A DNA stretch of 64,000 nucleotides. Origin: Marchantia polymorpha subsp. ruderalis (Eukaryota; Streptophyta; Marchantiopsida; Marchantiales; Marchantiaceae). The position numbers and the translations under genes are program-made. Under the pieces are notes generated by a model. The model had not been told where the DNA came from and did not search any database. It saw only the letters and a list, made by a program, of their open reading frames with translations. The stretch spans positions 1,079,501 to 1,143,500 of the forward strand of contig AP031355.1 in the NCBI GenBank assembly GCA_037833965.1, read 5' to 3'. Numbering within the stretch: position 1 is the first letter of the stretch; the number at the start of each line of letters is the position of its first letter. This document shows positions 1,319 to 48,662 of this stretch, piece after piece.

Positions 1319-2564
1319 TGTGGTACCCCACTTTTGGCAATTTTGAGGAAATTAAAACATTTTTGGAAAACTGTACCCTGGCAGCATTGTAAATAGCCTT
1401 CGGTACATCAAAACAGAGTGAATCCGGAAGATCGCGGGGATTCTCGAGGGATCTTGTAGAATCTGGGATTTGGGGTGCCGCAGCACGCACAGGCACCACC
1501 CTCCCTGCGAGCTCCGCAGTTAGGATCTCAACGGCGCAAGGCGCAAAACCCGCCTTCGGAGGTTGCGGCCGCGGCTGTAGGGAAACCCCCGTAATTAGGT
1601 AAACCCTCGGGCGCCTTGACCAAGTTAGGATCCCGTTGGAAAGAGCTCGACGCGCTGATTCCAACGAGCCCAAGATCGCTTGGAACGGACGAGGACTTAG
1701 GGAGTTATCGCTACTGGAAGAAACGGAGGCGGTCGCCCCCGGCGGAAGAATTTCGCCACCGGCGCGAATTCCGCCTGCGCGGAAGGGGGATTCAAGTTTT
1801 GTCCTATGCGCGGACGAAGGCGTTCGCCTGTGCGCAGGCGAAGTAGGGTTAGGGAAGGCGCGAAGTCCGCCTACGCACAGGCGTTCGCCTGCGCACAGGC
1901 ACTTCGGCGTCGGCGGAAAATCAGCCTTGGGCCCTAGAAATGCGCCTTGTGAGGTAGAAAGTGTACGGCGCCTTCCGCGCCAGCGCAGCGCAGCGTACGT
2001 AGGAAGAGCCGCCAGAGTAATCCAATAGGTACGGACCGTGCGGACGGCACGGGTGGATGCGCTCTTGGACGGACGGAGTTGCGGCGGCGGAAGCGCCGAC
2101 GGAGAGACACGGAACGGACAGACTGGACGGAGACGGCTGACCACGGTCAACGCCTTCCGCGCCAGCGCAGCGCCGCGGACGGAATTCGCCTGCGCACAGG
2201 CGAACGCCTGTGCACAGGAGGATGTTCAAGTTCCGCGCCGGCGGAGAATCCGCCGAGGCCCCTGCCTGCGCACAGGCAGGAGTTGAATTTTTGTCCGACA
2301 TGCGGACACACGCGTCAAGGCAGAAGGAGATTGGCCGAGGGGCGGTACGAACAAGTGTACCGCGCAAGGCGGAAAACTCGCCTTCGGCGCTACGCCCCCA
2401 TGTCCGGAGGGTGACACGCTCGCGGAGTTCAAATCCGCCAAGTCGAGCGTGAGAGTTTAATCGACGACGGCGGAGCGTGAAGCCGCGCGTGAGAGCGAAG
2501 ACCGTTCCAGCGTACAGCCGGCGCGGCCATCAAGTGAGACGTTCTTCACGACCAAGAGACGACC

Positions 2565-5500
2565 ATGACCTTCGACCGGGCGGCGGAGAGCGTCCCATTC
2601 TTGAATTCGCGATTCCAATCTCTTGTGCGCGCTGCGCGCATCCATCTGCTGGCTGCGGAACATTCTCGTCGTCGTCGCACAGGAGATTTCTTGTTGATTG
2701 AGGGAGAAGTGAGTGCGCGTGATTTGGAATTGAGAGCGATTAGAGTTTGCCGAGAGAGAAAGAAACGCGGACAGTGCGGAAGTAGAATGAGCGGGCGAGC
2801 GAACCCCAGGAACGCAATGACGAGACCGAGCAGATTGCGGATGGTGCCACTTCGCCTGCCGCAGAACGGGCTGCGCGCTTTCGAAGAGCGCTTAATAGCA
2901 AGAAAGCTCGATTTCTTGCTATGGGGATGGAATTACATCTGCGCGAATATGGTGCGCGAGTGGCTAGAGCCACAGGGACCACCCTCGCGCGGATTGCGTC
3001 CGCATGTCGACCGGTGGACAGTCCAAGATTGGGCGCAGGCGTTGGGAAGATGTGCTGGCATGCCAGGGCATCTCCTCTTCGACAGCGAGAGCATCAAGGT
3101 GACCAAGCAAGAAGAGGCGCAATTTGTGGAGCTGTTCAAGACCGGGAGGTCAACCAAGAATGGGTACAGGACCCGTGATTACAAGGATCGATTTCGCCGG
3201 ACTTTGTCCGCGGCGCTGATGCAATTACTGCAGCCGCACCGCGCCTGCTACATCACATTGTGGCAGGTCTCTTTTGTGGAGTGCGTCATCGAGGGAACTC
3301 CAATTCACTGGGCGAGCATCCTGCACAGAGTGATGCGACAGCACGCGTTTGAGGAGAAGGGGGGAACGCTAAACCATCTTTCTCCTTTCCTCATCAATTT
3401 TTATCGACAGCGGAATTGTTTGACAGCGGCGGAGCTTGAACATTTTCCGCCATTGTCCATCGACCATCCCGGGAAGTATGTGCGGGAGAACGAGGTCGAC
3501 ACTGATGCGGAGGAGTCACCGACTTCTACCCCATCAAGACGGAGGGATGAAGGGAGACACACCCCTGCGGCGCGAGTGCCGCGGAAGCGGCGATGGAGGG
3601 AAGAGGCCGAAGAGGAGCAGCATCAAGAACTCTCTGCTCCCATTCGACCGCGGCCGCTGTGCGAGCCATACAGCCGGCCGAAGCAGAAGGCACGCAGACT
3701 GGTGTTGCCAGCTGACAGTGCAGACACGGCGACGATTGCGACGGAGATAGGAAGTGCGTCGCCAGAGAGACGAGAGGAAGCGCGGACGACCGCAGGAGCG
3801 ACGGGCCACGCTGCAACCTCGTCGGGAGAGAGGCCGCCTACGGGCCAAGGGCCTCCGGAGTTACCACGTGCGATGCGGACAGAGGTTCCGTTCGCGCACA
3901 GGCAAACCTCCGCGGACGGACGAGCCTCCGCGGATCGGCGAACACAAGTGGACGTGGATCTACGCTTACGCGTGGGAAGGAGCAGTCCGCCTGTGCACAG
4001 GCGCTCGCCTGTGCACAGGTCACCTGTGCACAGAACACCTCCGCACGTGCCGCCTGTGCACAGGCAAGAATCACCCCCGTTCCAACGTAGGAAGGGGAAG
4101 GAGCCGGCGGAAGAACCGCCTACGAGACATTGGCCCTCGGGGCCAGACCCACCGGCGCACCACGCGCCGCAATTCGCGCCTTCGGCGCCAGGGCCTTCGA
4201 GCCGAGGAGATACGAGCAGAGAGCGTGCGGAGGCCGCACCATCGGCGGGAAGTCCGCCGATAGATGCGCCTTCGGCGGTAGGGCCTATAGGCCAAGGAGC
4301 ATCGGGCGTGCGGCCCCCGGCCATGTCGCCTTCGGCGATAGATGTCCGCGGCGCTACGCCTGCGGCGGACAAGGCGCCGGCAAATGCGCCTGCGCACGGG
4401 CCGGGCACAGCCCCCACGGACCGATCGAGGGAGCAGCAGACGGAGGAGCGGAGTGACTGTCCGCGGGACGACATCTCGATGCGCGATGCGCAATCCAACC
4501 CCGCGCAGCCACCCTCCGCTCGATCGCCTTCGGCGACGGACGACGGCGACAGAGAGAATGCGGTGGGCAATCAACCAGCGAGCGACGGGGATGCCGCTCG
4601 GATACATTCGCCTTCCGCCTTAGACATTTTGGCGACGAGCAGCGAGGCTGCAGCCGTGCCTTCGCAGGCAGCACACGTCGAGGACGTGCAGCCCCACTCG
4701 GGGCAGTCGCCGACGCAATCAATGGCGACTGAAATTCTCCACTCGGATGATGAGGACGGAGGCTCCACGGAAGAAATGTCAGGAGCAGAAGACACCGAGG
4801 AGGAGGAGGAGGAAATTGTTGGAGCGCCGGCGGCGGCGCTCTCTGAGCAGGTGATTCCGTTGCTGCGGTACTTGGATCGCAAGGTCGATAAATACGCCGA
4901 CCCACTCCAGCCGGGATCTTACATCGAGTTAGTGCGCAGGCGGACTCGCACTAAAGTCCACACCAGCAAGCTATTAGCTAGAGTGGACCAGGAGTTGAGG
5001 GACTTGAAGGAGAAGCATGAGTGCTTGTGGGGACAGTACAAGCTTAATCAGAAATTCTACAAGCACTCCGAGAAGATGAAGGATGAGAAACTGGGCGAGC
5101 TCACCAAGGAGCAGGTGAAGGTCAAGGAAGCACTCAACTCTGAGCAGGCCGAGAATCGGATTTTGTCAGAGGAGCTCGTGCGACAGACGCGGTTGTTGGA
5201 ACAATGTCAGCTCGCACGGCAGGCGGATGAAGAATTAATCCGCAGTCTGCAGTCAGAGTGTGGCGAATTGAGGGCGCAACGTGCTGAAGCCGAATCGCAA
5301 TTAGTGACCATTGAAGAGGATCGCAGGAAGGAGGCGGATCGCACGAAGGTGGAGACGGCGAGGCGAGTCGCCCACTGTCTCAAGGGCTACGCCCACTGGG
5401 AAGTGAAGGCGCAGGAGAAACTCACACTGCGTGAGTTTGAATTGCGCGCAGCCGGGTTGTTGTCAGGCGACAGTAGGAGTCGGCGGAAGGTAGCGAAGAA

Positions 5501-5702
5501 GCTCGAGGCCTTTCTGTCGAAGGCACAGGATACCATGTCCGCCCTCGAGGGGGAGGTGTCCGCGGCGTTGCAGCGGTTGGGACTGCGTAGTCGAGCGGAA
5601 GAGTGGCAGGGTAGGGAGTTAGTGCGCGGCAGTCGGCCGCGCAGGAGACGTAGTACAGGTTCCGCGGAGTGTAGTGTAGCGTGGTTCCGTGCAGGCGTGT
5701 AG
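2565..5702 (+). CDS. U3-encoded 1,045-aa accessory protein (LTR1 copy)
   Basis: This is a single uninterrupted frame with ATG in context gacgaccATGa, lying wholly in the LTR upstream of its TATA box. Residues about 110-295 resemble the putative plant transposon protein domain found in ORFs carried by plant retroelements, with tryptophan-rich helices and a conserved-looking VRGxxPHVDRW-like stretch. This is a family-level impression only. Residues about 300-745 are rich in P, S, A and R and look disordered; PVHR repeats at about 474-502 are encoded by GC palindromes. An acidic tract lies at about 726-752, a long coiled coil at about 804-960, and a basic tail at about 1016-1033. In genomic RNA it would sit 3' of pol. 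Function is unknown. Confidence 0.8.
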   Translation: MTFDRAAESVPFLNSRFQSLVRAARIHLLAAEHSRRRRTGDFLLIEGEVSARDLELRAIRVCRERKKRGQCGSRMSGRANPRNAMTRPSRLRMVPLRLPQNGLRAFEERLIARKLDFLLWGWNYICANMVREWLEPQGPPSRGLRPHVDRWTVQDWAQALGRCAGMPGHLLFDSESIKVTKQEEAQFVELFKTGRSTKNGYRTRDYKDRFRRTLSAALMQLLQPHRACYITLWQVSFVECVIEGTPIHWASILHRVMRQHAFEEKGGTLNHLSPFLINFYRQRNCLTAAELEHFPPLSIDHPGKYVRENEVDTDAEESPTSTPSRRRDEGRHTPAARVPRKRRWREEAEEEQHQELSAPIRPRPLCEPYSRPKQKARRLVLPADSADTATIATEIGSASPERREEARTTAGATGHAATSSGERPPTGQGPPELPRAMRTEVPFAHRQTSADGRASADRRTQVDVDLRLRVGRSSPPVHRRSPVHRSPVHRTPPHVPPVHRQESPPFQRRKGKEPAEEPPTRHWPSGPDPPAHHAPQFAPSAPGPSSRGDTSRERAEAAPSAGSPPIDAPSAVGPIGQGASGVRPPAMSPSAIDVRGATPAADKAPANAPAHGPGTAPTDRSREQQTEERSDCPRDDISMRDAQSNPAQPPSARSPSATDDGDRENAVGNQPASDGDAARIHSPSALDILATSSEAAAVPSQAAHVEDVQPHSGQSPTQSMATEILHSDDEDGGSTEEMSGAEDTEEEEEEIVGAPAAALSEQVIPLLRYLDRKVDKYADPLQPGSYIELVRRRTRTKVHTSKLLARVDQELRDLKEKHECLWGQYKLNQKFYKHSEKMKDEKLGELTKEQVKVKEALNSEQAENRILSEELVRQTRLLEQCQLARQADEELIRSLQSECGELRAQRAEAESQLVTIEEDRRKEADRTKVETARRVAHCLKGYAHWEVKAQEKLTLREFELRAAGLLSGDSRSRRKVAKKLEAFLSKAQDTMSALEGEVSAALQRLGLRSRAEEWQGRELVRGSRPRRRRSTGSAECSVAWFRAGV
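3988..4063. repeat. Cluster of GC palindromes inside the U3 gene (LTR1)
   Basis: The core CTGTGCACAG, a perfect palindrome, occurs at 3991-4000, 4009-4018, 4024-4033 and 4054-4063. The first lies in the perfect 16-bp palindrome CGCCTGTGCACAGGCG. Read in frame the core gives P-V-H-R. Near-identical palindromes also occur in the noncoding part of U3, for example 1823-1842 and 2185-2204. Copy number differs between LTRs. Confidence 0.9.
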
Positions 5703-5738
5703 CGTAGTGCAGTGTAGTGCTAGGTAGGACTTAGAAGG

Positions 5739-5747
5739 TATAAAATA
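5739..5747 (+). promoter_or_regulatory. TATA box of LTR1
   Basis: TATAAAATA lies about 36 bp after the U3 gene stop codon and is conserved in every LTR (16931-16939, 28090-28098, 40868-40876, 52239-52247; on the minus strand 33371-33379). It is the best candidate for the genomic-RNA promoter. A stem-loop, CCAGGC-GTTTT-GCCTGG, follows at 5751-5767, close to the expected start site. Confidence 0.75.
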
Positions 5748-5767
5748 GTTCCAGGCGTTTTGCCTGG

Positions 5768-6714
5768 GGTTCTTTCCCAAACTCAGAAGTATAGATCAGG
5801 AACCCATTTCCTTTGCGTGTTTGTGTCCTTGAGTTCTGTCACCACGCACGAGGAGTTACAACTTAGCGTTCCGCATTTTGTAGCTGAAGGCCTGCGGCCG
5901 AATGTTCAGAGCTAGTACATTGGTTAGAGACTTGAGTAGTTCGGATCTGCACCTGCGGGTGACTGCCGATGCTCAGAGCCAGTGACTAGTTAGATACTTG
6001 AACAGTTTCGCCCCTACACCTTCGAGTGTTTCTTTCTGATTGTACTCCTTGGGATTTTTCCCCTGAATGCCAAAGTGAAGTTTTGCTACTTCGTGTAAGC
6101 CTTGGTTGTAAATTCAGGTTACGCTGCAGCAGGTGCCTTGAGGGTAACCCCTGTAGTATTTCTGGGAATGACAAGTGCCTGAGAATTCAAACTCTTCAAT
6201 AGACTGTTGTTGTGTTACTGGAATGTTTCACAGTGAGTCCTTCAGTGCGGACCTGTGTTCTCTGCGCGTTTTGTGAGTTGAGAGTGTTGTTCACCGCGTA
6301 GGAGTGACTTCGATCCGAAGTAGGCAGTCCAAACCGGGTTTCCTACACTAGCAGCAAGCTAGTGGAAGTGTTGTAAAAGCCGGAGTTGGAAGTCACTGCC
6401 CGCAGCTTTGCCGAGTGTGCTCGCGAGAGACTTTCCCCCTGAAATCTTGAAGTAGAGGTCCTAACGGATCTCTGGGTTGTGTTTCTGTAGTTTCAGGTGT
6501 GTGTGTGTGTGTGTGTTACGCTGCACTGTGCGACCTCCGAGTGCGCTCCGAGTGGACACTTGCAGTATTTCTGGGAGTGACAGTCGCCTGAGAATTCAAA
6601 CTCCTCAATAGTCTGTTAAAACGTGACACTTTGTACCCTGTGTGTTCCTCTGTCCCTGTGGGTTCGACCTTTCTACCACTATATTACAGTTTTAGCCTTT
6701 AGTGGGTTATTACA
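5768..6714 (+). promoter_or_regulatory. R-U5 leader of LTR1 with diverged internal repeats
   Basis: This stretch has no gene. It holds a 54-bp diverged direct repeat (6155-6208 and 6564-6617, both reading AGTATTTCTGGGA then CCTGAGAATTCAAACTC), a second weaker repeat (about 5905 and 5972) and small stem-loops such as GGCC-TGC-GGCC near 5889-5900 and an ACAC...GTGT stem with a TTCG loop near 6016. Several short upstream ATG frames are present. It would form the structured 5' leader of genomic RNA. No clear AATAAA signal was seen. Confidence 0.55.
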
Positions 6715-6736
6715 TAAGAAGCCGACAACTTCTTTT

Positions 6737-6754
6737 TGGCGCCGCTGCCGGGGA
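6737..6754 (+). promoter_or_regulatory. Primer-binding site, tRNA-Asp type (copy 1)
   Basis: TGGCGCCGCTGCCGGGGA fits the complement of the 3' end of plant tRNA-Asp, including CCA, with one mismatch at base 9 (compared from memory). It lies 22 bases after the LTR end. Athila-type elements are known to use tRNA-Asp. Confidence 0.8.
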
Positions 6755-6789: not shown

Positions 6790-6831
6790 ATGCTCGGTGA
6801 ATGTCGACTGGGGCTGGCGGGAGCAATCTAA
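6790..6831 (+). other. Short upstream ORF overlapping the gag start (copy 1)
   Basis: This is a 13-codon frame plus stop. Its ATG is in a better context (G at -3) than the gag ATG 11 bases downstream (T at -3). The same frame with the same stop is kept at 17982-18023 and 41922-41963. It could lower gag initiation by leaky scanning. Function is inferred, not shown. Confidence 0.4.
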
Positions 6832-9632
6832 GTGCTAGGGCTGTCCGCAAGTTCCGACGAGATTCAGAGAAGGCCGTGGAAGAGACACGGCGTCAAACCA
6901 AGAAAACACCAAAAAGAGTACCTAAGCCTAGTTCGGCCGACATCCTTGGGGAACCTACCCCCGGCGACTCGGAACCAAACTTGGTGCTTACAGTTCTACT
7001 AGATATTCCTTGCACGGACCCGCCTAGTGAAGTAGAACCGACCGCCCGAGGACCGTCGACAGACACACTGATGGCGGACGGACAAGCCAATGTGCGGCTA
7101 CCTCAGCCGATTACTAAACATTCCTACCCGAAGTACAAAGGAAGTGGGGATGACGACGATGCAGATTCATACATCAAGTTATTCGAGTCGGTGTCTATTG
7201 CCAATCGCGAGATCGCAGACGACGACCGACTAAGGATCTTTCCAAGCCTTCTGCGGAAGAAAGCGAGGAGTTGGTATAATCACGAGAGCATCGATCCGAC
7301 TGGGTTGACAACATGGGCCCAGCTGAAGGAGAAGTTCCTTCGTCGCTTTCGCGAGCTCGGCTACGACAGCCGGGTTTTGACGAAGTTACGTAATTTGCAG
7401 CGAGAGAAGAAGGAGAGTCTGCGTGACTACACTGAGAGATTTCTGGACCTCCTCGACAGAATACCGAAAACAGGACCAGGGTCCCCTTTTTCGGTACAAC
7501 AAGTTGTGGATTGGTACGTGACCGGTTTAACTCGGGAGATGGAGACTTTTTGCCGACGCAGCAAGTGCGACACTATTGAGGATGTGATTGCATCGGCAGA
7601 AGCCTTCGAAACTTCCACTCTCAACCGAAGAGGGAGAGAGAGACGGGAGTCGAAGGAGCGCAAACCGAAAGGAGGGCGAAGACGGCGTAGAGGTACAACT
7701 CCGTCATCGGAGGAATCGTCTTCGGACGAGAACCGTTCTTCATCCGAAGAAGAGGAAACCTCATCGTCGGAGGAGGAGAAGAAGAGGAAGAAGCATGGGT
7801 CAGCGAAGAAAAAGGGCATCCGACGAGTGGCTACGGACAGAGCGCCGGGAGATATAGCTTCGAAGATGGAGACCCTTGTGAAGGACTTCGCCGATCTCAA
7901 GGTTCAAGTGGTAGGCGGGCATGATCGCAGAAAATCACCCGGGAGAGTGCGAGCGAACTTATGGTGTACTACGTGCGGAGCGGTGGGACATGCAAACACC
8001 GAGTGCCTTACCACCCGGCCGTCATATCCAGTCAACGCAGTAGAGTGGGCGCAACCGTACTATGGAGAGCACCCTCAGTACTATGGAGAGGCTAGCGAAG
8101 AGACAGCCTACGCCGTCCAGTCGGTGCCTACCCCTCCTGCAGTTTCAGCAATGCAAGTCCCACGATATATTCCGGTGGATCGGGCCACTACGGTACCTGT
8201 GAGGCGGAGAGCACCTCCAGGGACGTTTGACCCACCGCCACCGCGAGCTTGTTATAATTGCGGGGAAGTTGGGCACTTCTCACCGCAGTGTCCCCATCCA
8301 AAAAGGCGAAACGATTATGCTCCGACATGTAGTAATTGCAAGAAGGTCGGGCACACTGCGCCAGAGTGTGATCAGCCACCAGTCCCTCGGCCAGTGGTAC
8401 GATTTGTGAACACTCCTGCCAAGGAGGACGTGCAAGTTAACCAGGTCGAAGTAGGTTCAGACGGGGATGGCGAAGACGAAGAATGGCCGGCTGAAGAGGT
8501 TATGTGCGCACGGGTCGAAACTCGTAGTTCCAAGAAATCGAAGGAGCAAGAGCGCGACACTCGCAAGCACGAACGGAGAACCGCCGACCGGACGGGAAAA
8601 GGAAAGGAGAAGACATCCAGCAAGTCCGACTCGCGACCTGCTCGGAAGTCTTCGACTACGCGGGAGGCACCAGCAGTGCGCCCCCAGGCAGCAGTCGAGG
8701 ACGAGCCAGTGCGCCTACTGAAACGGGACTATGCTCCGGATATCCGCAACGAGGTAGCCAACCTGTTGCAGGAAGCGATCCGCACTCAAAAGGACCCACC
8801 GCGGCCAGACCTGACATCCTCCCTTGGGGCGAAGTTGGCAGCCACCGTGGAACCTCGCAGAGCGTCGCCGACCCCGGCGCCCCAACGCGCCCACTATGAC
8901 TTGGTTGAAGATCTCGGGAGTCGAAAAGTGAACATTACGTTCAAGCAGCTCTTGGAGGACAATAAGACGTATCGGAGAATGTTGATGCTTTCGCTACGGC
9001 ATCCGCGGAAGCCGCGCGCGTCCACATCCTCTCAAGTATATCAAGTGGAGAGCGAAGACCAAGGGCCACCCGAGATCGATGTGGAGATAGCAGGATGTTG
9101 TGTACGCAGAGTGCCAATCGACTCTGGATCAGGAGTCAACATAATGACGGAGGATACAGCGAGAGCCTTGGGGTTCAGTCAATACGAACCCTCGAAGCGT
9201 GTGTTGAGATTAGCGGATCAGACGCGGAGAATGCCTGCAGGTATGCTGCGCAATGTCAAGACAACCATCGGGGGTGCGGACTTTCGGTTGACGTATATCA
9301 TCCTTCAGCCGATGATGAAGCAGGGCTATGACGTTCTGCTCGGGCGACCATGGCTATATGGTGCACAAGTCAGATGTGATTGGCGAAGACATCGCCTTAA
9401 GTTTCCTCACCCTTCGGAACCGACCAAAACCATTACGGTGCCCTGGAATAGGGTCAGGCACGAAGGAGAGACCCCATCGACAAGTGCAGGTTACACATCG
9501 GGCGAGGACAGTGAGTCGACCGCGCGATCGGATTCCAGTGGTACCGAATCCGATTACTTCGTGGGATTCGTTGCCTGCTGTTCGGTGGAAGAAGAAGAAG
9601 AGACGGAAGCTATTCAGCCGGAAGACGAATAG
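6801..9632 (+). CDS. gag-pr: Gag-protease polyprotein, copy 1 (943 aa)
   Basis: Structural protein of the virus-like particle, fused to the aspartic protease. A retrotransposon gag domain spans about residues 105-270. A serine/glutamate and lysine-rich linker follows at about 295-340. Three CCHC zinc knuckles that bind genomic RNA lie at 389-402, 484-497 and 510-523. The protease has its catalytic D-S-G at 774-776, with a later LLGRPWL helix. The ATG at 6801 is the first in frame and follows the primer-binding site. The frame ends in TAG with a leaky context and continues into pol. It is intact here; V-for-A in the QQVVDWY segment is a private difference from copy 2. Confidence 0.93.
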   Translation: MSTGAGGSNLSARAVRKFRRDSEKAVEETRRQTKKTPKRVPKPSSADILGEPTPGDSEPNLVLTVLLDIPCTDPPSEVEPTARGPSTDTLMADGQANVRLPQPITKHSYPKYKGSGDDDDADSYIKLFESVSIANREIADDDRLRIFPSLLRKKARSWYNHESIDPTGLTTWAQLKEKFLRRFRELGYDSRVLTKLRNLQREKKESLRDYTERFLDLLDRIPKTGPGSPFSVQQVVDWYVTGLTREMETFCRRSKCDTIEDVIASAEAFETSTLNRRGRERRESKERKPKGGRRRRRGTTPSSEESSSDENRSSSEEEETSSSEEEKKRKKHGSAKKKGIRRVATDRAPGDIASKMETLVKDFADLKVQVVGGHDRRKSPGRVRANLWCTTCGAVGHANTECLTTRPSYPVNAVEWAQPYYGEHPQYYGEASEETAYAVQSVPTPPAVSAMQVPRYIPVDRATTVPVRRRAPPGTFDPPPPRACYNCGEVGHFSPQCPHPKRRNDYAPTCSNCKKVGHTAPECDQPPVPRPVVRFVNTPAKEDVQVNQVEVGSDGDGEDEEWPAEEVMCARVETRSSKKSKEQERDTRKHERRTADRTGKGKEKTSSKSDSRPARKSSTTREAPAVRPQAAVEDEPVRLLKRDYAPDIRNEVANLLQEAIRTQKDPPRPDLTSSLGAKLAATVEPRRASPTPAPQRAHYDLVEDLGSRKVNITFKQLLEDNKTYRRMLMLSLRHPRKPRASTSSQVYQVESEDQGPPEIDVEIAGCCVRRVPIDSGSGVNIMTEDTARALGFSQYEPSKRVLRLADQTRRMPAGMLRNVKTTIGGADFRLTYIILQPMMKQGYDVLLGRPWLYGAQVRCDWRRHRLKFPHPSEPTKTITVPWNRVRHEGETPSTSAGYTSGEDSESTARSDSSGTESDYFVGFVACCSVEEEEETEAIQPEDE

Positions 9633-9638: not shown

Positions 9639-12473
9639 ACTGTGGGACTGGGAAGGAGTGAGACGAGTCACACCGAGGGCATTGTCGACCCTAGTGACTG
9701 TCACGAAGTACAACTCAGTCCCGGCAAGTGCTTGAAGGTATCAAGCGCAGTGAGAGGAGACGAGCTAAGGAAAGTACAGGCGTTCCTTAGCCACTATGTC
9801 GACGTCTTCGCCTGGAAGATCGAGGACATGAAGGGGATACCTGCACGGTATGGGGAGCACCGTATCGATTTACTGGACGACTCAGTACCCATACGACAGC
9901 GCCAGTATCGCCTCAACCCAAAGTACTCCTTGCTAGTGAAAGAGGAGATAGATAAGTACTTGAGCGCTGGTATTATTTATCCTGTGCTCAGCAGTGAGTG
10001 GGTGTCGCCGATTGTTATCGTACCCAAGAAGTTGACGGGTAAGATACGAGTGTGTCAGGATTTCCGGAAGTTGAATGCGGCAACACGCAAGGATCATCAC
10101 CCGTTACCATTCACGGATGCCATTCTAGACCATGTCGCAGGACATGAATGTTATAGCTTCCTGGATGGGTTCTCAGGTTACAATCAGGTGTCTATCCGTG
10201 AACAGGACAAGGATAAAACTACGTTCACAACCGACTGGGGAACTTACGCATACCACAAGATGCCCTTCGGTCTGTGCAACGCGCCTGCCACCTTTCAACG
10301 GATGATGACCAATATCTTTCAGGAACAACTGAGGAAGTTCCTGGAGATATTCATAGATGACTTCTGTGTCTTTGGGAAGCGGTCTGAACACCTAAGTCAC
10401 TTGAAGCAGACCTTCGATAAATGTAGAGAATGAAGTTTATCACTGCATCCCGAGAAGTGCTTTTTCTTCATGACTAGTGGGATCTTGTTGGGTCATCGGG
10501 TCTCGGCAGAAGGCATTGCGGTGGACATCGAGAAGGTCAAGGTTATACTCGAGCTTGAGCCACCCACGAATCTAAGAGAGCTGCGAGCATTCCTGGGTCA
10601 TGTGGGCTACTACCGAAGATTCATACACATGTATGCAATACTGGCGGCGGACCTGACCAAGTTGTTGAAGAAGGACGAGCCTTATGCTTGGGGTGCGAAC
10701 CAGCAGACAGCATTTGAAGCTCTGAAAGCGAAACTCACGACTGCTCCCGTACTAAGGAGTCCAGACTGGAATCGACCATTCCATGTTTACGTTGACACTT
10801 CGGCATTCGCCATCGGTGTAGTACTGAGTCAAAAGGATGACAACAAAAAGGACTACCCGATCTACTTCGCGAGCCGACAGCTGTCTCTAGCAGAGCGGAA
10901 GTACACCACGACGGAGAGAGAAGCGTTGGGGATGGTGTACTCCTGTAAAAAGTTCCGTCACTACCTAATCTGCTACGAGTTTGTGTTCCATGTGGACCAC
11001 TACGCATTGCAACACCTAGTCAAGAAAGCCGACCTATCCGGTCGAATCGCCAGGTGGGTGTTATTACTACAAGAGTTCACCTACACAGTCCAGACCAGGA
11101 AAGGGGTGCACCACGAAAATGCGGATTACTTGTCCCGATTATGGACCCAGCCGACAGAGGAGGAATTGGTGGACGATTTTCCAGATGAAGAGTTATTTCA
11201 GTTGTCTGCAGGACATGAGTCCCGCTATGCCGACCTGTATCGATATCTGCTAACCCTCCAGTGCCCCGAGGGCATGGATTTGGAACAGCGAACTGTCTTT
11301 ATTCATAAGGCAGGCCCGTATCAACTCCAGCAGGGGGTTTTGTTCAAGAAGATGGCGGATGAGCGCTTATGCAGATGCCTGGAGGAATCAGAAGTACCAA
11401 GAATAGTGAGTGCGATGCACACAGAGGAGGCGGGTGGACACTATGCCACCAGGAACACGGTCACAAAGATCCTAAATGCGGGATATTGGTGGCCGACCAT
11501 GTTTAAGGATGTTCTCGATTACATCCGCAAGTGCGACAGTTGCCAGAGGACGGGGAGACCGACGCCTACAACACGCTGGCCTCTGACTCCCATCATGCCT
11601 CTAGCACCTTTCGAAAAGTGGGGTATTGACTTTGTAGGGCCGATACAACCAGTGACTAGAAGTACACGAAGGCGCTACATTCTGGTAGCAACGGACTACG
11701 CCACCAAAATGGTAGAGGCCAGAGCCACCAGAAGGGATGATGCTGCCACAGTGGCAGCATTCTTGTTCGAGTCAATCATCACACGCTATGGATGTCCCTT
11801 AGAGCTAGTTAGCGACCGGGGCACGCATTTTCTGAATCAGATCATCGAAGACCTGACACGGTATTTCCACATCAAGCACCGGAAGACTACTCCATACAAT
11901 CCCAAGGCAAATGGACTGACGGAGAAGTCCAATGGACTGCTGTGTAAAATACTACTCAAGGTCACGGTGAATCACGCCCACGACTGGGATACGAAGTTAG
12001 CAGCCGCTCTATGGGCGTACCGCACAGCTGAGAAGATCACGACCAAACAGACACCATACTTTCTGGTGTATGGGCAACACCCGATCCTCCCGATCGAATT
12101 CGAAGTACCCACCCATCGAACGATGGATTTGCAGAGGATGGGCGCAGAGGAGAGTCAGCTCTACAGGTTACAGGAGGTCATGCTGCTGGATGAGCGGAGA
12201 AGAGACGCCGAAGATCGCACCAGGAAAATCCAGCTCCGCCGAAAGGAGAGATACGATAAAAAGATCAAACCGGTACTCCTGCAGGCAGGTGATTTGGCAT
12301 TGCTCTACGACAGCAGGCATGCCAGATTCCCAGGCAAACTGCACCTAAGGTGGATGGGACCTTACAGGGTTGTCGAAGTCTTCCCGAATGGATCCATCCA
12401 ACTTGCGGACCTGGCCGGCGATTTGTTAGGCACCCGAGTCAACGGGTGGCGGTTGAAGAAATACCACATGTGA
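9633..12473 (+). pseudogene. pol: Pol (RT-RNase H-integrase), copy 1, interrupted by a stop in RT
   Basis: In frame with gag after the leaky TAG. Reverse transcriptase shows FLDGFSGYNQ, MPFGLCNAPATFQ and the catalytic FIDDF (D at codons 242-243 after the TAG). RNase H, HHCC integrase, DDE core and a GPY/F-like tail (RWMGPYRVVEVF) follow. A TGA at 10431-10433 (codon 267) cuts the protein shortly after the RT active site; the intact copy at 44768-47608 has serine there. The change is a cluster of three substitutions over four bases. The rest of the frame to 12473 is open. Separate translation from the internal ATG at 10470 cannot be excluded but has no obvious basis. The stop is shared with copy 2. 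Confidence 0.9.
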
Positions 12474-12497: not shown

Positions 12498-12508
12498 GAG
12501 GAGGGGGG
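12498..12508 (+). promoter_or_regulatory. Polypurine tract, copy 1
   Basis: GAGGAGGGGGG lies two bases before the TG of LTR2 and primes plus-strand DNA synthesis. An inverted repeat, TACCACATG (12462-12470, end of pol) and CATGTGGTA (12509-12517, LTR edge), brackets it, with a second TGTGAG/CTCACA stem inside (12469-12474 and 12489-12494). Confidence 0.85.
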
Positions 12509-12510
12509 CA

Positions 12511-15500
12511 TGTGGTACCCCACTTTTGGCAATTTTGAGGAAATTAAAACATTTTTGGAAAACTGTACCCTGGCAGCATTGTAAATAGCCTTCGGTACAT
12601 CAAAACAGAGTGAATCCGGAAGATCGCGGGGATTCTCGAGGGATCTTGTAGAATCTGGGATTTGGGGTGCCGCAGCACGCACAGGCACCACCCTCCCTGC
12701 GAGCTCCGCAGTTAGGATCTCAACGGCGCAAGGCGCAAAACCCGCCTTCGGAGGTTGCGGCCGCGGCTGTAGGGAAACCCCCGTAATTAGGTAAACCCTC
12801 GGGCGCCTTGACCAAGTTAGGATCCCGTTGGAAAGAGCTCGACGCGCTGATTCCAACGAGCCCAAGATCGCTTGGAACGGACGAGGACTTAGGGAGTTAT
12901 CGCTACTGGAAGAAACGGAGGCGGTCGCCCCCGGCGGAAGGATTTCGCCACCGGCGCGAATTCCGCCTGCGCGGAAGGGGGATTCAAGTTTTGTCCTATG
13001 CGCGGACGAAGGCGTTCGCCTGTGCGCAGGCGAAGTAGGGTTAGGGAAGGCGCGAAGTCCGCCTACGCACAGGCGTTCGCCTGCGCACAGGCACTTCGGC
13101 GTCGGCGGAAAATCAGCCTTGGGCCCTAGAAATGCGCCTTGTGAGGTAGAAAGTGTACGGCGCCTTCCGCGCCAGCGCAGCGCAGCGTACGTAGGAAGAG
13201 CCGCCAGAGTAATCCAATAGGTACGGACCGTGCGGACGGCACGGGTGGATGCGCTCTTGGACGGACGGAGTTGCGGCGGCGGAAGCGCCGACGGAGAGAC
13301 ACGGAACGGACAGACTGGACGGAGACGGCTGACCACGGTCAACGCCTTCCGCGCCAGCGCAGCGCCGCGGACGGAATTCGCCTGCGCACAGGCGAACGCC
13401 TGTGCACAGGAGGATGTTCAAGTTCCGCGCCGGCGGAGAATCCGCCGAGGCCCCTGCCTGCGCACAGGCAGGAGTTGAATTTTTGTCCGACATGCGGACA
13501 CACGCGTCAAGGCAGAAGGAGATTGGCCGAGGGGCGGTACGAACAAGTGTACCGCGCAAGGCGGAAAACTCGCCTTCGGCGCTACGCCCCCATGTCCGGA
13601 GGGTGACACGCTCGCGGAGTTCAAATCCGCCAAGTCGAGCGTGAGAGTTTAATCGACGACGGCGGAGCGTGAAGCCGCGCGTGAGAGCGAAGACCGTTCC
13701 AGCGTACAGCCGGCGCGGCCATCAAGTGAGACGTTCTTCACGACCAAGAGACGACCATGACCTTCGACCGGGCGGCGGAGAGCGTCCCATTCTTGAATTC
13801 GCGATTCCAATCTCTTGTGCGCGCTGCGCGCATCCATCTGCTGGCTGCGGAACATTCTCGTCGTCGTCGCACAGGAGATTTCTTGTTGATTGAGGGAGAA
13901 GTGAGTGCGCGTGATTTGGAATTGAGAGCGATTAGAGTTTGCCGAGAGAGAAAGAAACGCGGACAGTGCGGAAGTAGAATGAGCGGGCGAGCGAACCCCA
14001 GGAACGCAATGACGAGACCGAGCAGATTGCGGATGGTGCCACTTCGCCTGCCGCAGAACGGGCTGCGCGCTTTCGAAGAGCGCTTAATAGCAAGAAAGCT
14101 CGATTTCTTGCTATGGGGATGGAATTACATCTGCGCGAATATGGTGCGCGAGTGGCTAGAGCCACAGGGACCACCCTCGCGCGGATTGCGTCCGCATGTC
14201 GACCGGTGGACAGTCCAAGATTGGGCGCAGGCGTTGGGAAGATGTGCTGGCATGCCAGGGCATCTCCTCTTCGACAGCGAGAGCATCAAGGTGACCAAGC
14301 AAGAAGAGGCGCAATTTGTGGAGCTGTTCAAGACCGGGAGGTCAACCAAGAATGGGTACAGGACCCGTGATTACAAGGATCGATTTCGCCGGACTTTGTC
14401 CGCGGCGCTGATGCAATTACTGCAGCCGCACCGCGCCTGCTACATCACATTGTGGCAGGTCTCTTTTGTGGAGTGCGTCATCGAGGGAACTCCAATTCAC
14501 TGGGCGAGCATCCTGCACAGAGTGATGCGACAGCACGCGTTTGAGGAGAAGGGGGGAACGCTAAACCATCTTTCTCCTTTCCTCATCAATTTTTATCGAC
14601 AGCGGAATTGTTTGACAGCGGCGGAGCTTGAACATTTTCCGCCATTGTCCATCGACCATCCCGGGAAGTATGTGCGGGAGAACGAGGTCGACACTGATGC
14701 GGAGGAGTCACCGACTTCTACCCCATCAAGACGGAGGGATGAAGGGAGACACACCCCTGCGGCGCGAGTGCCGCGGAAGCGGCGATGGAGGGAAGAGGCC
14801 GAAGAGGAGCAGCATCAAGAACTCTCTGCTCCCATTCGACCGCGGCCGCTGTGCGAGCCATACAGCCGGCCGAAGCAGAAGGCACGCAGACTGGTGTTGC
14901 CAGCTGACAGTGCAGACACGGCGACGATTGCGACGGAGATAGGAAGTGCGTCGCCAGAGAGACGAGAGGAAGCGCGGACGACCGCAGGAGCGACGGGCCA
15001 CGCTGCAACCTCGTCGGGAGAGAGGCCGCCTACGGGCCAAGGGCCTCCGGAGTTACCACGTGCGATGCGGACAGAGGTTCCGTTCGCGCACAGGCAAACC
15101 TCCGCGGACGGACGAGCCTCCGCGGATCGGCGAACACAAGTGGACGTGGATCTACGCTTACGCGTGGGAAGGAGCAGTCCGCCTGTGCACAGGCGCTCGC
15201 CTGTGCACAGGTCACCTGTGCACAGAACACCTCCGCACGTGCCGCCTGTGCACAGGCAAGAATCACCCCCGTTCCAACGTAGGAAGGGGAAGGAGCCGGC
15301 GGAAGAACCGCCTACGAGACATCGGCCCTCGGGGCCAGACCCACCGGCGCACCACGCGCCGCAATTCGCGCCTTCGGCGCCAGGGCCTTCGAGCCGAGGA
15401 GATACGAGCAGAGAGCGTGCGGAGGCCGCACCATCGGCGGGAAGTCCGCCGATAGATGCGCCTTCGGCGGTAGGGCCTATAGGCCAAGGAGCATCGGGCG

Positions 15501-17906
15501 TGCGGCCCCCGGCCATGTCGCCTTCGGCGATAGATGTCCGCGGCGCTACGCCTGCGGCGGACAAGGCGCCGGCAAATGCGCCTGCGCACGGGCCGGGCAC
15601 AGCCCCCACGGACCGATCGAGGGAGCAGCAGACGGAGGAGCGGAGTGACTGTCCGCGGGACGACATCTCGATGCGCGATGCGCAATCCAACCCCGCGCAG
15701 CCACCCTCCGCTCGATCGCCTTCGGCGACGGACGACGGCGACAGAGAGAATGCGGTGGGCAATCAACCAGCGAGCGACGGGGATGCCGCTCGGATACATT
15801 CGCCTTCCGCCTTAGACATTTTGGCGACGAGCAGCGAGGCTGCAGCCGTGCCTTCGCAGGCAGCACACGTCGAGGACGTGCAGCCCCACTCGGGGCAGTC
15901 GCCGACGCAATCAATGGCGACTGAAATTCTCCACTCGGATGATGAGGACGGAGGCTCCACGGAAGAAATGTCAGGAGCAGAAGACACCGAGGAGGAGGAG
16001 GAGGAAATTGTTGGAGCGCCGGCGGCGGCGCTCTCTGAGCAGGTGATTCCGTTGCTGCGGTACTTGGATCGCAAGGTCGATAAATACGCCGACCCACTCC
16101 AGCCGGGATCTTACATCGAGTTAGTGCGCAGGCGGACTCGCACTAAAGTCCACACCAGCAAGCTATTAGCTAGAGTGGACCAGGAGTTGAGGGACTTGAA
16201 GGAGAAGCATGAGTGCTTGTGGGGACAGTACAAGCTTAATCAGAAATTCTACAAGCACTCCGAGAAGATGAAGGATGAGAAACTGGGCGAGCTCACCAAG
16301 GAGCAGGTGAAGGTCAAGGAAGCACTCAACTCTGAGCAGGCCGAGAATCGGATTTTGTCAGAGGAGCTCGTGCGACAGACGCGGTTGTTGGAACAATGTC
16401 AGCTCGCACGGCAGGCGGATGAAGAATTAATCCGCAGTCTGCAGTCAGAGTGTGGCGAATTGAGGGCGCAACGTGCTGAAGCCGAATCGCAATTAGTGAC
16501 CATTGAAGAGGATCGCAGGAAGGAGGCGGATCGCACGAAGGTGGAGACGGCGAGGCGAGTCGCCCACTGTCTCAAGGGCTACGCCCACTGGGAAGTGAAG
16601 GCGCAGGAGAAACTCACACTGCGTGAGTTTGAATTGCGCGCAGCCGGGTTGTTGTCAGGCGACAGTAGGAGTCGGCGGAAGGTAGCGAAGAAGCTCGAGG
16701 CCTTTCTGTCGAAGGCACAGGATACCATGTCCGCCCTCGAGGGGGAGGTGTCCGCGGCGTTGCAGCGGTTGGGACTGCGTAGTCGAGCGGAAGAGTGGCA
16801 GGGTAGGGAGTTAGTGCGCGGCAGTCGGCCGCGCAGGAGACGTAGTACAGGTTCCGCGGAGTGTAGTGTAGCGTGGTTCCGTGCAGGCGTGTAGCGTAGT
16901 GCAGTGTAGTGCTAGGTAGGACTTAGAAGGTATAAAATAGTTCCAGGCGTTTTGCCTGGGGTTCTTTCCCAAACTCAGAAGTATAGATCAGGAACCCATT
17001 TCCTTTGCGTGTTTGTGTCCTTGAGTTCTGTCACCACGCACGAGGAGTTACAACTTAGCGTTCCGCATTTTGTAGCTGAAGGCCTGCGGCCGAATGTTCA
17101 GAGCTAGTACATTGGTTAGAGACTTGAGTAGTTCGGATCTGCACCTGCGGGTGACTGCCGATGCTCAGAGCCAGTGACTAGTTAGATACTTGAACAGTTT
17201 CGCCCCTACACCTTCGAGTGTTTCTTTCTGATTGTACTCCTTGGGATTTTTCCCCTGAATGCCAAAGTGAAGTTTTGCTACTTCGTGTAAGCCTTGGTTG
17301 TAAATTCAGGTTACGCTGCAGCAGGTGCCTTGAGGGTAACCCCTGTAGTATTTCTGGGAATGACAAGTGCCTGAGAATTCAAACTCTTCAATAGACTGTT
17401 GTTGTGTTACTGGAATGTTTCACAGTGAGTCCTTCAGTGCGGACCTGTGTTCTCTGCGCGTTTTGTGAGTTGAGAGTGTTGTTCACCGCGTAGGAGTGAC
17501 TTCGATCCGAAGTAGGCAGTCCAAACCGGGTTTCCTACACTAGCAGCAAGCTAGTGGAAGTGTTGTAAAAGCCGGAGTTGGAAGTCACTGCCCGCAGCTT
17601 TGCCGAGTGTGCTCGCGAGAGACTTTCCCCCTGAAATCTTGAAGTAGAGGTCCTAACGGATCTCTGGGTTGTGTTTCTGTAGTTTCAGGTGTGTGTGTGT
17701 GTGTGTGTTACGCTGCACTGTGCGACCTCCGAGTGCGCTCCGAGTGGACACTTGCAGTATTTCTGGGAGTGACAGTCGCCTGAGAATTCAAACTCCTCAA
17801 TAGTCTGTTAAAACGTGACACTTTGTACCCTGTGTGTTCCTCTGTCCCTGTGGGTTCGACCTTTCTACCACTATATTACAGTTTTAGCCTTTAGTGGGTT
17901 ATTACA
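12511..17906 (+). mobile_element. LTR2 of element 1 (middle LTR, 5,396 bp)
   Basis: Same length as LTR1 and nearly identical. The two differences I saw, near 12934 and in the CATCGGCCC near 15320, match LTR3 rather than LTR1. It is shared by the two internal regions, as expected for a product of LTR-LTR recombination. TATA box at 16931-16939. Confidence 0.95.
13757..16894 (+). CDS. U3-encoded 1,045-aa accessory protein (LTR2 copy)
   Basis: Open throughout, with the same architecture as the LTR1 copy: plant-transposon-like N-terminal region, disordered P/S/A/R middle with PVHR repeats, acidic tract, coiled coil, basic tail. One amino-acid difference from the LTR1 copy was noticed (R for W in the GPxPP-rich middle). 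Being in the middle LTR, it lies both 3' of pol copy 1 and 5' of gag copy 2. Confidence 0.8.
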   Translation: MTFDRAAESVPFLNSRFQSLVRAARIHLLAAEHSRRRRTGDFLLIEGEVSARDLELRAIRVCRERKKRGQCGSRMSGRANPRNAMTRPSRLRMVPLRLPQNGLRAFEERLIARKLDFLLWGWNYICANMVREWLEPQGPPSRGLRPHVDRWTVQDWAQALGRCAGMPGHLLFDSESIKVTKQEEAQFVELFKTGRSTKNGYRTRDYKDRFRRTLSAALMQLLQPHRACYITLWQVSFVECVIEGTPIHWASILHRVMRQHAFEEKGGTLNHLSPFLINFYRQRNCLTAAELEHFPPLSIDHPGKYVRENEVDTDAEESPTSTPSRRRDEGRHTPAARVPRKRRWREEAEEEQHQELSAPIRPRPLCEPYSRPKQKARRLVLPADSADTATIATEIGSASPERREEARTTAGATGHAATSSGERPPTGQGPPELPRAMRTEVPFAHRQTSADGRASADRRTQVDVDLRLRVGRSSPPVHRRSPVHRSPVHRTPPHVPPVHRQESPPFQRRKGKEPAEEPPTRHRPSGPDPPAHHAPQFAPSAPGPSSRGDTSRERAEAAPSAGSPPIDAPSAVGPIGQGASGVRPPAMSPSAIDVRGATPAADKAPANAPAHGPGTAPTDRSREQQTEERSDCPRDDISMRDAQSNPAQPPSARSPSATDDGDRENAVGNQPASDGDAARIHSPSALDILATSSEAAAVPSQAAHVEDVQPHSGQSPTQSMATEILHSDDEDGGSTEEMSGAEDTEEEEEEIVGAPAAALSEQVIPLLRYLDRKVDKYADPLQPGSYIELVRRRTRTKVHTSKLLARVDQELRDLKEKHECLWGQYKLNQKFYKHSEKMKDEKLGELTKEQVKVKEALNSEQAENRILSEELVRQTRLLEQCQLARQADEELIRSLQSECGELRAQRAEAESQLVTIEEDRRKEADRTKVETARRVAHCLKGYAHWEVKAQEKLTLREFELRAAGLLSGDSRSRRKVAKKLEAFLSKAQDTMSALEGEVSAALQRLGLRSRAEEWQGRELVRGSRPRRRRSTGSAECSVAWFRAGV

Positions 17907-30951: not shown

Positions 30952-31602
30952 TGTGTTACCCCACTTTTGGCAATTTTGAGGAAATTAAAACATTTTTGGA
31001 AAACTGTACCCTGGCAGCATTGTAAATAGCCTTCGGTACATCAAAACGGAGTGAATCCGGAAGATCGCGGGGATTCTCGAGGGATCTTGTAGAATCTGGG
31101 ATTTGGGGTGCAGCAGTAAGGCCGGGCACCACCCTCCCTGCGAGCTCTGCAGTTAGGATCTCTACGGCGCAAGGCGCAAAACCCGCCTTCGGAGGTTGCG
31201 TCCGCGGCGGTAGGGAAATCCTCCATAATCAGGTCAACCCTCGGGCGCCTTGACCAAGTTAGGGTCCCTTTGAAAAGAGCTCGACGCACTGATTCCAACG
31301 AGTCCAAGAACGCTTGGAACGGATGAGGACTTAGGGAGTTATCACTATTGGAAGAAACGGAGGCGGTCGCCTACGGCGGAAAGAGTTCGCCACCGGCGCG
31401 AATTCCGCCTACGCGGAAGGGGGAATCAAGTTTTGTCCTATGCGCGGACGAAGGCGTTCGCCTGTGCACAGGCGAAGTAGGGTTAGGGGAGGCGCGAAGT
31501 CCGCCTACGCACAGGCGCTCGCCTGTGCACAGGCGCTTCGGCGTCGGCGGGAAATCCGCCTTGGGCCCTAGAAATGCGCCTTGTGAGGTAGAAAGTGTAC
31601 GG

Positions 31603-31968
31603 CGCCTTCCGCGCCAGCGCAGCGCCGCGTACGGCGGAAGAGCCGCCAGAGTAAATCAAATCGGTACGGACCATGCGGACGGGACGGGTGGATGCGCTCT
31701 TGGACGGACGGAGTTGCGGCGGCGGAAGCGCCGACGAAGAGACAAGGAACGGACAGACTGGACGGAGACGGCTGACCACGGTCAACGCCTTCCGCGCCAG
31801 CGCAGCGCCGCGTACGGCGGAAGAGCCGCCAGAGTAAATCAAATCGGTACGGACCATGCGGACGGGACGGGTGGATGCGCTCTTGGACGGACGGAGTTGC
31901 GGCGGCGGAAGCGCCGACGAAGAGACAAGGAACGGACAGACTGGACGGAGACGGCTGACCACGGTCAA
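31603..31968. repeat. 183-bp tandem duplication in U3 of LTR4
   Basis: Two copies, 31603-31785 and 31786-31968, each starting CGCCTTCCGCGCCAGCGCAG; a partial third start follows at 31969. LTRs of element 1 have one copy (from 1969). The same duplication is in LTR5, so it predates insertion of element 2. Confidence 0.92.
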
Positions 31969-32402
31969 CGCCTTCCGCGCTAGCGCAGCGCCGCGCACGG
32001 AATTCGCCTGCGCACAGGCGGACGCCTGTGCACAGGAGGATGTTCAAGTCCCGCGCCGGCGGAGAATCCGCAGAGGCTCCTGCCTGCGCACAGGCAGGAG
32101 TTGAACTTTTGTCCGACATGCGGACACACGCATCAAGGCAGAGGGGGATTGGCCGAGGGGCGGTACGAACAAGTGTACCGCGCAAGGCGGAAAACTCGCC
32201 TTCGGCGCTACGCCCCCATGTCCGCGGGGTAATACGCTCGCGGAGTTCAAATCCGCCAATTCGAGCGTGAGAGTTTAAGCGACGACGGCGGAGCGTGAAG
32301 CCGCGCGTGAGAGCGAAGACCGTTCCAGCGTACAGCCGGCGCGACCATCAAGTGAGACGTTCTTCACGAGCAGGAGCCGACCATGACCTTCGACCGGGCG
32401 GC

Positions 32403-32407
32403 GGAGA
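32403..32407. repeat. Target site duplication GGAGA, left copy (solo LTR)
   Basis: GGAGA at 32403-32407 is repeated at 37768-37772. LTR5 has a single GGAGA at the equivalent place. Confidence 0.93.
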
Positions 32408-37767: not shown

Positions 37768-37772
37768 GGAGA

Positions 37773-41846: not shown

Positions 41847-41868
41847 TAAGAAGCCGACAACTTCTTTT

Positions 41869-41886
41869 TGGCGCCGCTGCCGGGGA
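41869..41886 (+). promoter_or_regulatory. Primer-binding site, tRNA-Asp type (element 2)
   Basis: Identical to the two sites in element 1, 22 bases after LTR4. Confidence 0.8.
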
Positions 41887-41932
41887 CAGTTGCGTCAACA
41901 CCAGGGTTTTTACGAGCAGCCATGCTCGGTGA

Positions 41933-44767: not shown

Positions 44768-44773
44768 CAATTA
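44765..44773 (+). promoter_or_regulatory. Readthrough stop context TAG CAA TTA (element 2)
   Basis: Matches CARYYA and is conserved with both copies in element 1. Because gag and pol are both open here, element 2 is the copy in which readthrough would give a full Gag-Pol. Confidence 0.8.
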
Positions 44774-47608: not shown

Positions 47609-47632
47609 GTGTTCGCGTGGGCGCTCACAATT

Positions 47633-47643
47633 GAGGAGGGGGG
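47633..47643 (+). promoter_or_regulatory. Polypurine tract (element 2)
   Basis: GAGGAGGGGGG two bases before LTR5, with the same bracketing inverted repeat as in element 1. Confidence 0.85.
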
Positions 47644-48296: not shown

Positions 48297-48662
48297 CGCC
48301 TTCCGCGCCAGCGCAGCGCCGCGTACGGCGGAAGAGCCGCCAGAGTAAATCAAATCGGTACGGACCATGCGGACGGGACGGGTGGATGCGCTCTTGGACG
48401 GACGGAGTTGCGGCGGCGGAAGCGCCGACGAAGAGACAAGGAACGGACAGACTGGACGGAGACGGCTGACCACGGTCAACGCCTTCCGCGCCAGCGCAGC
48501 GCCGCGTACGGCGGAAGAGCCGCCAGAGTAAATCAAATCGGTACGGACCATGCGGACGGGATGGGTGGATGCGCTCTTGGACGGACGGAGTTGCGGCGGC
48601 GGAAGCGCCGACGAAGAGACAAGGAACGGACAGACTGGACGGAGACGGCTGACCACGGTCAA
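48297..48662. repeat. 183-bp tandem duplication in U3 of LTR5
   Basis: Copies at 48297-48479 and 48480-48662, matching those of LTR4 apart from single bases. Confidence 0.92.

What the first reader, a model, noticed from the sequence alone, without database searches (positions are those of the whole stretch)
2565..5702. A 1,045-codon gene encoded entirely within U3 of the LTR
The frame lies between the LTR start and the LTR TATA box (5739), so it is U3 sequence, present in both LTRs and placed 3' of pol in genomic RNA. The nearest known parallels by position are MMTV sag and, partly, lentiviral nef. I know of no described plant element whose LTR is mostly a gene of this size. It also explains LTRs almost as long as the internal region. 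The domain order (plant-transposon-type N-terminus, disordered middle, coiled coil) suggests a DNA- or particle-associated partner protein, but that is inference.
Basis: partly seen in the sequence, partly recalled or inferred. Interest (0 to 1): 0.9.

Follow-up and report, generated by a model that had tools for sequence, protein, structure and literature searches.

The report
Retrotransposon gene inside its terminal repeats
An abundant retrotransposon in this plant genome carries a large, selection-maintained gene of unknown function entirely inside its terminal repeats, a place where such elements normally keep only control signals, so each newly made terminal repeat is also a new copy of that gene.

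Summary
Confirmed, with refinements. The window holds a Ty3/gypsy-type element with 5,396-bp LTRs (TG...CA, 5-bp TSD, PPT, PBS-like motif). A 1,045-codon sense frame lies at 2565-5702, upstream of the LTR's only TATA box (5739), hence in U3, and recurs in all three LTRs of the tandem element. It is no GC artefact: longest chance ORF 399 aa in 2,000 simulated LTRs. Between two window subfamilies dN/dS is 0.17-0.19 (gag-pro 0.145), with 14 synonymous and 0 nonsynonymous changes in residues 85-310. A second family (about 40% identical) has an intact 851-codon frame in the same place; 46 of 53 scored matches form 23 LTR-spaced pairs. Family comparison puts the conserved start at 2817, so the protein is probably about 961 aa: a conserved N-terminal domain without Pfam or PDB match, a low-complexity middle with basic runs, and a long C-terminal coiled coil; no membrane span. 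Older copies are often broken. Best reading: a nuclear accessory protein of the element, at the env position of genomic RNA but engulfed by the LTR. Expression is untested.

The parts
1319..6714 (+). LTR1 of element A (5,396 bp, TG..CA)
   Evidence: self-comparison; borders and TSD TCAAG (1314-1318; repeated after 29065)
2565..5702 (+). U3 open frame, 1,045 codons from the first ATG
2817..5702 (+). probable protein (961 aa) from the start codon shared by the compared families
   Evidence: the family C ORF begins at the homologous ATG; codons 1-74 near-neutral among A copies but not in A-B
2817..3494 (+). conserved N-terminal domain, residues 85-310, unknown fold
   Evidence: A-B: 14 synonymous and 0 nonsynonymous changes; 33-64% aa identity to other families; no relevant Pfam or PDB sequence match; AF2 pLDDT 41
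3495..4817 (+). low-complexity, Pro/Ser/Ala/Arg-rich middle with basic NLS-like runs
   Evidence: composition and motif scan, (meaning of the motif recalled)
4968..5465 (+). long C-terminal coiled coil, residues about 802-967
   Evidence: AF2 helix 51-216 of window:4818-5699
5739..5747 (+). TATA box of the LTR promoter, 37 nt downstream of the ORF stop
   Evidence: TATAAA in all 8 rows
5751..5767 (+). inverted repeat CCAGGC-GTTTT-GCCTGG just after the TATA box, kept by a paired change in other families
6737..6754 (+). primer-binding-site-like motif (tRNA-Asp type by recall), 22 nt after the LTR end
6801..9632 (+). gag-pro ORF, 943 aa, ending in TAG CAA TTA
9642..12473 (+). pol (RT, RNase H, integrase), interrupted in this copy by an in-frame stop at 10431-10433
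12498..12510 (+). polypurine tract directly before LTR2; 37 bp lie between the pol stop and LTR2
12511..17906 (+). LTR2 with U3 frame 13757-16894
23703..29065 (+). LTR3 with U3 frame 24949-28053 (1,034 aa)
32408..37767 (-). solo LTR, TSD GGAGA, with intact U3 frame 33416-36520 (1,034 aa), inserted in the 5' LTR of element B
30952..53215 (+). element B (subfamily), TSD AATCC; 5' LTR split by the solo LTR; U3 frame 49077-51512 ends at a premature stop (811 aa); pol open as one 943-aa frame

Best explanation
The LTR carries a real, selection-maintained accessory gene of the retrotransposon. In genomic RNA (starting, by inference, about 30 nt after the TATA box at 5739) the gene lies once, 3' of pol, where env-like or extra ORFs of other elements lie; here the polypurine tract sits directly after pol, so reverse transcription copies the gene into both LTRs at every cycle. 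The protein (about 961 aa) combines a strongly conserved N-terminal domain, a flexible basic middle with NLS-like runs and a long coiled coil. I infer a multimeric nuclear accessory factor that acts on the element's own RNA or cDNA complex (nuclear export of unspliced RNA, or entry and integration), made from a spliced or separately initiated short mRNA. Shown: position, conservation, selection, both-LTR presence; predicted with confidence: the coiled coil. Inferred: nuclear site, multimerisation, the step it serves, and the mRNA.
For: Anatomy. Selection: A-B dN/dS 0.173 (B2) and 0.194 (B1), core 0 of 525 nonsynonymous sites changed. Between families third codon positions change most in 12 of 12 comparisons; dN/dS is 0.11-0.34 in the 9 of 12 where synonymous sites were not fully saturated. 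Window-copy indels: 4 of 4 distinct ones in the ORF are multiples of three, 1 of 6 outside. The two LTRs of element B differ by 1 synonymous and 3 nonsynonymous changes in 799 codons: few, but no sign of constraint after insertion, so selection seems to act in the element's life cycle. Family C: 53 of 53 scored matches span all 851 residues, 52 without a stop; 46 of 53 in 23 same-strand pairs, 21 of them 10,588-10,684 bp apart; one pair of LTRs 100% identical over 4,870 bp. Coiled coil. Basic runs in A, C and the most distant family D; highest 19-residue hydropathy 1.14 (A) and 1.22 (C), too low for a membrane span.
Against: No transcript, peptide or localisation data. N-terminal fold not predicted (pLDDT 41). 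NLS and function are read from motifs only. Older copies are often broken (4 of 6 PBS-picked LTRs; B2 in the window). The match lists hold only the best 44 and 53 of over 13,000 candidates each, so they favour intact copies, and the within-A dN/dS and the indels of fetched A loci come from that list. Synonymous divergence between families is high (pS 0.28-0.69 where used), so those ratios are rough.
Confidence: 0.62

Rival explanations
1. Each LTR is a self-contained gene: a promoter in the first 1.2 kb of U3 drives the frame and the R region ends the mRNA, so that solo LTRs also express the protein and can supply it in trans.
For: A solo LTR in the window keeps an intact 1,034-aa frame. LTR-end motifs outnumber those that continue into TAAG, the start of the internal region, 5,748 to 1,314, so solo LTRs seem to be commoner than full elements. 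The frame lies 1.2 kb inside the LTR, leaving room for a promoter.
Against: No TATA[AT]A upstream of the frame in A; in C only a TATAA at LTR position 225 (other families not scanned). No promoter activity was tested.
Confidence: 0.25
2. Transcription starts upstream of 2565, so the frame is in the 5' leader (R/U5) and is read first from genomic RNA.
For: No start site has been mapped here.
Against: TATAAA begins 37 nt (A) and 34 nt (C) downstream of the frame's stop and is in 8 of 8 leader rows aligned.
Confidence: 0.06
3. The open frame is a by-product of G+C-rich, stop-poor sequence or of conserved regulatory DNA.
For: G+C of the LTR is 58%; several shorter overlapping frames exist on both strands.
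Against: Chance maximum 399 aa in 2,000 simulations; codon-phased substitution; in-frame indels; amino-acid identity to distant families.
Confidence: 0.01
4. The frame is a host gene captured recently and now merely carried along.
For: Some plant elements transduce genes (PMC7264820, parts 1-2 of 3 read).
Against: It sits at the same place in families with 33-64% core identity, so it is old, and it stays under purifying selection. No search for a host homologue apart from the element copies was made.
Confidence: 0.06

Closest known systems
Extra ORFs of plant Ty3/gypsy elements between pol and 3' LTR (aORF-3S/3R, eORF; Athila, Bagy2, Grande gene23, RIRE2, Retand)
   Same: Position 3' of pol in genomic RNA, element-specific protein of unclear function; Grande's protein localises to the nucleus (PMC7264820, parts 1-2 of 3 read).
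   Different: Those lie in the internal region; here the whole gene is in the LTR and thus in both LTRs. Grande, RIRE2 and Retand ORFs are antisense; this one is sense. No Transposase_28, PMD or ATHILA domain matched the protein.
MMTV sag (and, in part, lentiviral nef)
   Same: Protein gene lying in U3 of the LTR (recalled; PMC9412291 seen only as a search listing).
   Different: Different host kingdom and element class; no sequence comparison with sag was made; the frame here is much longer (sag length recalled).
Cer1 CERV (C. elegans)
   Same: Env-position accessory protein, nuclear, predicted coiled coils, needed for export of unspliced RNA (passages of PMC10309623 read).
   Different: [quoted passage not shown] no sequence comparison was made.

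Membership tests
Ty3/gypsy LTR retrotransposon, non-chromovirus | Domain order PR-RT-RH-INT | tested here: met
Ty3/gypsy LTR retrotransposon, non-chromovirus | No chromodomain | tested here: met
   none at E up to 1
Tat lineage (Ogre, Retand) | Second RNase H (aRH) domain (PMC6317226 section 13 read) | tested here: not met
   only one RNase H region, residues 74-203 of P0004
[quoted passage not shown]
   ORF is inside the LTR; pol stop 12473, LTR2 start 12511
Env-like protein | Transmembrane segment | tested here: not met
   maximum 19-residue hydropathy 1.14 (A) and 1.22 (C)
Transposase_28 / plant mobile domain / ATHILA ORF-1 type eORF | Pfam domain match | tested here: not met
   PF04195 gave 3 genome matches, none over the cut-off; the PF10536 genome search did not complete
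MMTV sag-like U3 gene | Gene within U3, upstream of the LTR promoter | tested here: met
   by TATA position only
MMTV sag-like U3 gene | Expression from the 3' LTR copy | not testable with these tools
   no RNA data

The most novel reading that the evidence does not exclude
The LTR itself has become a stand-alone protein gene: promoter, coding frame and terminator in one 5-kb repeat. Solo LTRs, apparently commoner than full elements, would then be thousands of dispersed accessory genes (those still intact) that can act in trans on full-length elements, a genome-wide shared pool of an accessory factor.
Probability: 0.22. Interest if true: 0.88.

Novelty: new variant of a known kind. Interest (0 to 1): 0.74.

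Why it matters
LTRs are commonly treated as non-coding control repeats and solo LTRs as remnants (general knowledge). Here most of U3 is a conserved gene, in a group of families with 1,327 PBS-motif sites and 5,748 LTR-end motifs in the genome. It offers a direct test of what env-position extra ORFs of plant retrotransposons do, a question that PMC7264820 calls unresolved, and shows a simple layout (polypurine tract right after pol) by which such a gene is duplicated in each insertion.

Tried and rejected
Rejected: GC artefact and regulatory-only conservation; selection on resident host copies (B1-B2 changes look neutral but are only four); Transposase_28 kinship; env-like membrane protein. 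Led nowhere: PDB sequence searches with P0001 and alignments A1, A2 (no match at E up to 1, 10 and 1); N-terminal structure (pLDDT 41), so no fold search was run; splice-site hunting by eye (candidate pyrimidine-AG stretches, not convincing); LTR start of family D not found. Paper searches whose listings (titles and starts of abstracts) showed no report of an LTR-resident plant gene. The library holds open-licence PMC papers only; Steinbauerova 2011 was seen only as a citation.

Full report
Setting. The window is G000:C6:1079501-1143500 of a 241.47-Mb genome in 9 contigs. Contig C1 is 5.59 Mb and C2-C9 are 24-33 Mb. Eight similar chromosomes plus one small one suggest a liverwort of the Marchantia kind; this is recall and inference, not a test.

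Element. Self-comparison and border reading give LTR1 1319-6714, internal 6715-12510, LTR2 12511-17906, a second internal region, and LTR3 23703-29065, flanked as one unit by the TSD TCAAG. LTR1 and LTR2 differ at 2 of 5,396 bases and the two internal regions at 1 of 5,796. Pfam finds gag, zinc knuckles, protease, RT, RNase H and integrase, no chromodomain and one RNase H region. The PBS-like motif starts 22 nt after the LTR end. A related element B (30952-53215, TSD AATCC) carries a solo LTR of the A type (32408-37767, TSD GGAGA) in its 5' LTR.

The frame. ORF 2565-5702 (1,045 aa) begins 1,246 bases into the LTR; TATAAAATA begins 37 nt downstream of its stop, at 5739, the only TATA[AT]A on that strand of the LTR. 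In family C TATAAA begins 34 nt downstream of the stop. The frame is therefore U3 by promoter position. Simulated LTRs gave no ORF above 399 aa (2,000 runs).

Is it in both LTRs, genome-wide? Family C (L039) has LTRs of 4,870 bp, 100% identical between the two ends, with an 851-aa frame in the same place; L043/L046 agree (99.73% over 4,869 columns). A protein search with the L039 frame scored 53 of 13,440 candidates; 53 of 53 span residues 1-851 and 52 lack stops. From these coordinates 46 of 53 form 23 same-strand pairs 8.9-11.1 kb apart, 21 of the 23 at 10,588-10,684 bp, that is, LTR spacing. For family A, 44 of 13,269 candidates were scored; 44 of 44 span 1-1045, 43 without a stop, and 16 of 44 form 8 pairs, 7 of them 10.8-11.2 kb apart and one 14.3 kb. 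These lists hold the best matches only, so they say nothing on the broken fraction. Copies not picked by the protein: in the window 4 of 6 LTR copies are intact (LTR1-3 and the solo LTR; B's 5' copy is split by an insertion, B's 3' copy ends at a premature stop); on C1, of the 8 PBS loci held I fetched the LTRs of six, 2 of 6 intact.

Selection. A against B in the window, not chosen by the protein: U3 frame dN/dS 0.173 (B2, 810 codons) and 0.194 (B1, 1,014 codons), gag-pro 0.145, RT 0.034, RNase H-integrase 0.065; residues 85-310 have 14 synonymous and 0 nonsynonymous changes. A against the solo LTR: 0.181. Between the two LTRs of B: 1 synonymous and 3 nonsynonymous changes in 799 codons, no sign of constraint after insertion, though the number is small. 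Across 465 pairs of 31 A copies pN/pS is 0.19 overall and 0.009 for columns 110-310, but 29 of those copies were ranked by protein similarity. Between families, 12 region comparisons were made: in 9 dN/dS is 0.11-0.34, in 3 synonymous sites were saturated and the ratio is not usable; third positions change most in 12 of 12. Some rows are broken copies, which raises the ratio. Indels against LTR1: in four window copies 4 of 4 distinct ORF indels are multiples of three, 1 of 6 outside; in 21 fetched A loci (22 tried) 2 of 2 and 5 of 17, the former again biased by the ranking.

Depth of conservation. Core-domain identity to A is 58% (C), 64% (L042), 61% (fragment of L055), 56% (L041 and a fragment of L053) and 33% (L054, family D). 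In D the homologous sequence lies upstream of a PBS-like site, as expected if it is in the 5' LTR, but the LTR start was not found and the copy is broken.

Start codon. L039, L041, L042, L053 and L055 have the ATG homologous to 2817; C has no earlier ATG in its open frame. Codons 1-37 and 38-74 of A have pN/pS of 0.71 and 1.00 among A copies. Against this, A-B in codons 1-74 shows 6 synonymous and 2 nonsynonymous changes and the A start ATG is shared by B, L042 and L053. So an N-terminal extension in the A branch is possible; the conserved protein is about 961 aa.

Protein. No relevant Pfam match and no PDB sequence match. AF2: C-terminal 294 residues mean pLDDT 76, one 166-residue helix with 12 of 17 blocks above 90; N-terminal domain pLDDT 41, no usable fold. 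Residues 311-740 are 63% P/S/T/A/G/R. Basic runs (RKRRW in A, KRKW in C, KKRKV in D) follow the core domain in all three; calling them NLS-like is recall. No membrane span.

How it may work. Pol ends at 12473 and the LTR starts at 12511 with the polypurine tract between them. In genomic RNA the frame occurs once, 3' of pol; strand transfer in reverse transcription then places it in both LTRs (established LTR-retroelement replication). A gene at the env position has thus been engulfed by the LTR; that the tract moved, rather than the gene, is inference. Translation needs a spliced or separately started RNA (inference). Closest functional parallel by design: Cer1 CERV, a nuclear, coiled-coil, env-position protein needed for export of unspliced RNA (PMC10309623, passages read). 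Grande's nuclear gene23 product is the closest plant parallel (PMC7264820, parts 1-2 of 3 read). In Retand elements 57 of 104 antisense ORFs carry Transposase_28 (PMC11963269, passages read); this protein does not match that domain.

Abundance. PBS motif with up to 2 mismatches: 1,327 sites, 0 in the reversed-pattern control. LTR-end motif 5,748, of which 1,314 continue into TAAG. If each of the 1,314 has one 3' LTR, about 3,100 LTR ends remain, so solo LTRs look commoner than full elements; this is a rough count (exact motifs only; arrays and broken elements blur it).

Literature. Neumann et al. 2019 (PMC6317226, section 13 and passages read) report LTRs up to about 5 kb and eORFs in non-chromoviruses, without mention of genes in LTRs in what I read; 'Marchantia' and 'liverwort' do not occur in its text. 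Six phrases for an ORF in an LTR found one paper, on MMTV; the listings showed nothing on plants of that kind.

Verdict. New variant of a known kind: an extra ORF of a plant Ty3/gypsy element housed in U3.

Noticed in passing
9630-9641 and 44765-44776: gag-pro ends in TAG CAA TTA and the same frame runs on into RT. This is the TMV-type leaky stop context (full motif recalled; PMC2754532 passages describe TMV readthrough and its flanking CAA codons). A pattern with the stop codon left free gave 539 sites; 100 of the 100 listed have TAG there.
   Followed up: partly
1319-29065; also G000 C2 about 31.35-31.38 Mb, C3 about 20.84-20.88 Mb: Tandem LTR-internal-LTR-internal-LTR layout with constant spacing (11,192 in the window; four junction sites 11,184 apart and four 11,092 apart elsewhere).
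   Followed up: no
LTR1 against LTR3 (1319-6714, 23703-29065): LTR3 differs from LTR1 by 18 mismatches in its first 2.7 kb but by 1 in the last 2.7 kb, a mosaic.
   Followed up: no
G000 C1, about 2.34-2.88 Mb: Five pairs of LTR junctions lie at an exact offset of 406,369 bp, which suggests a large segmental duplication on the small contig, or an assembly artefact.
   Followed up: partly
5751-5767: Inverted repeat right after the TATA box; other families keep it with a paired change (CCAGGC/GCCTGG to CAAGGC/GCCTTG).
   Followed up: partly
10431-10433 and 21623-21625: Pol of both tandem copies of element A is interrupted by a stop at the same place, while their U3 frames are intact; element B has an open pol but a broken 3' U3 frame.
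   Followed up: partly
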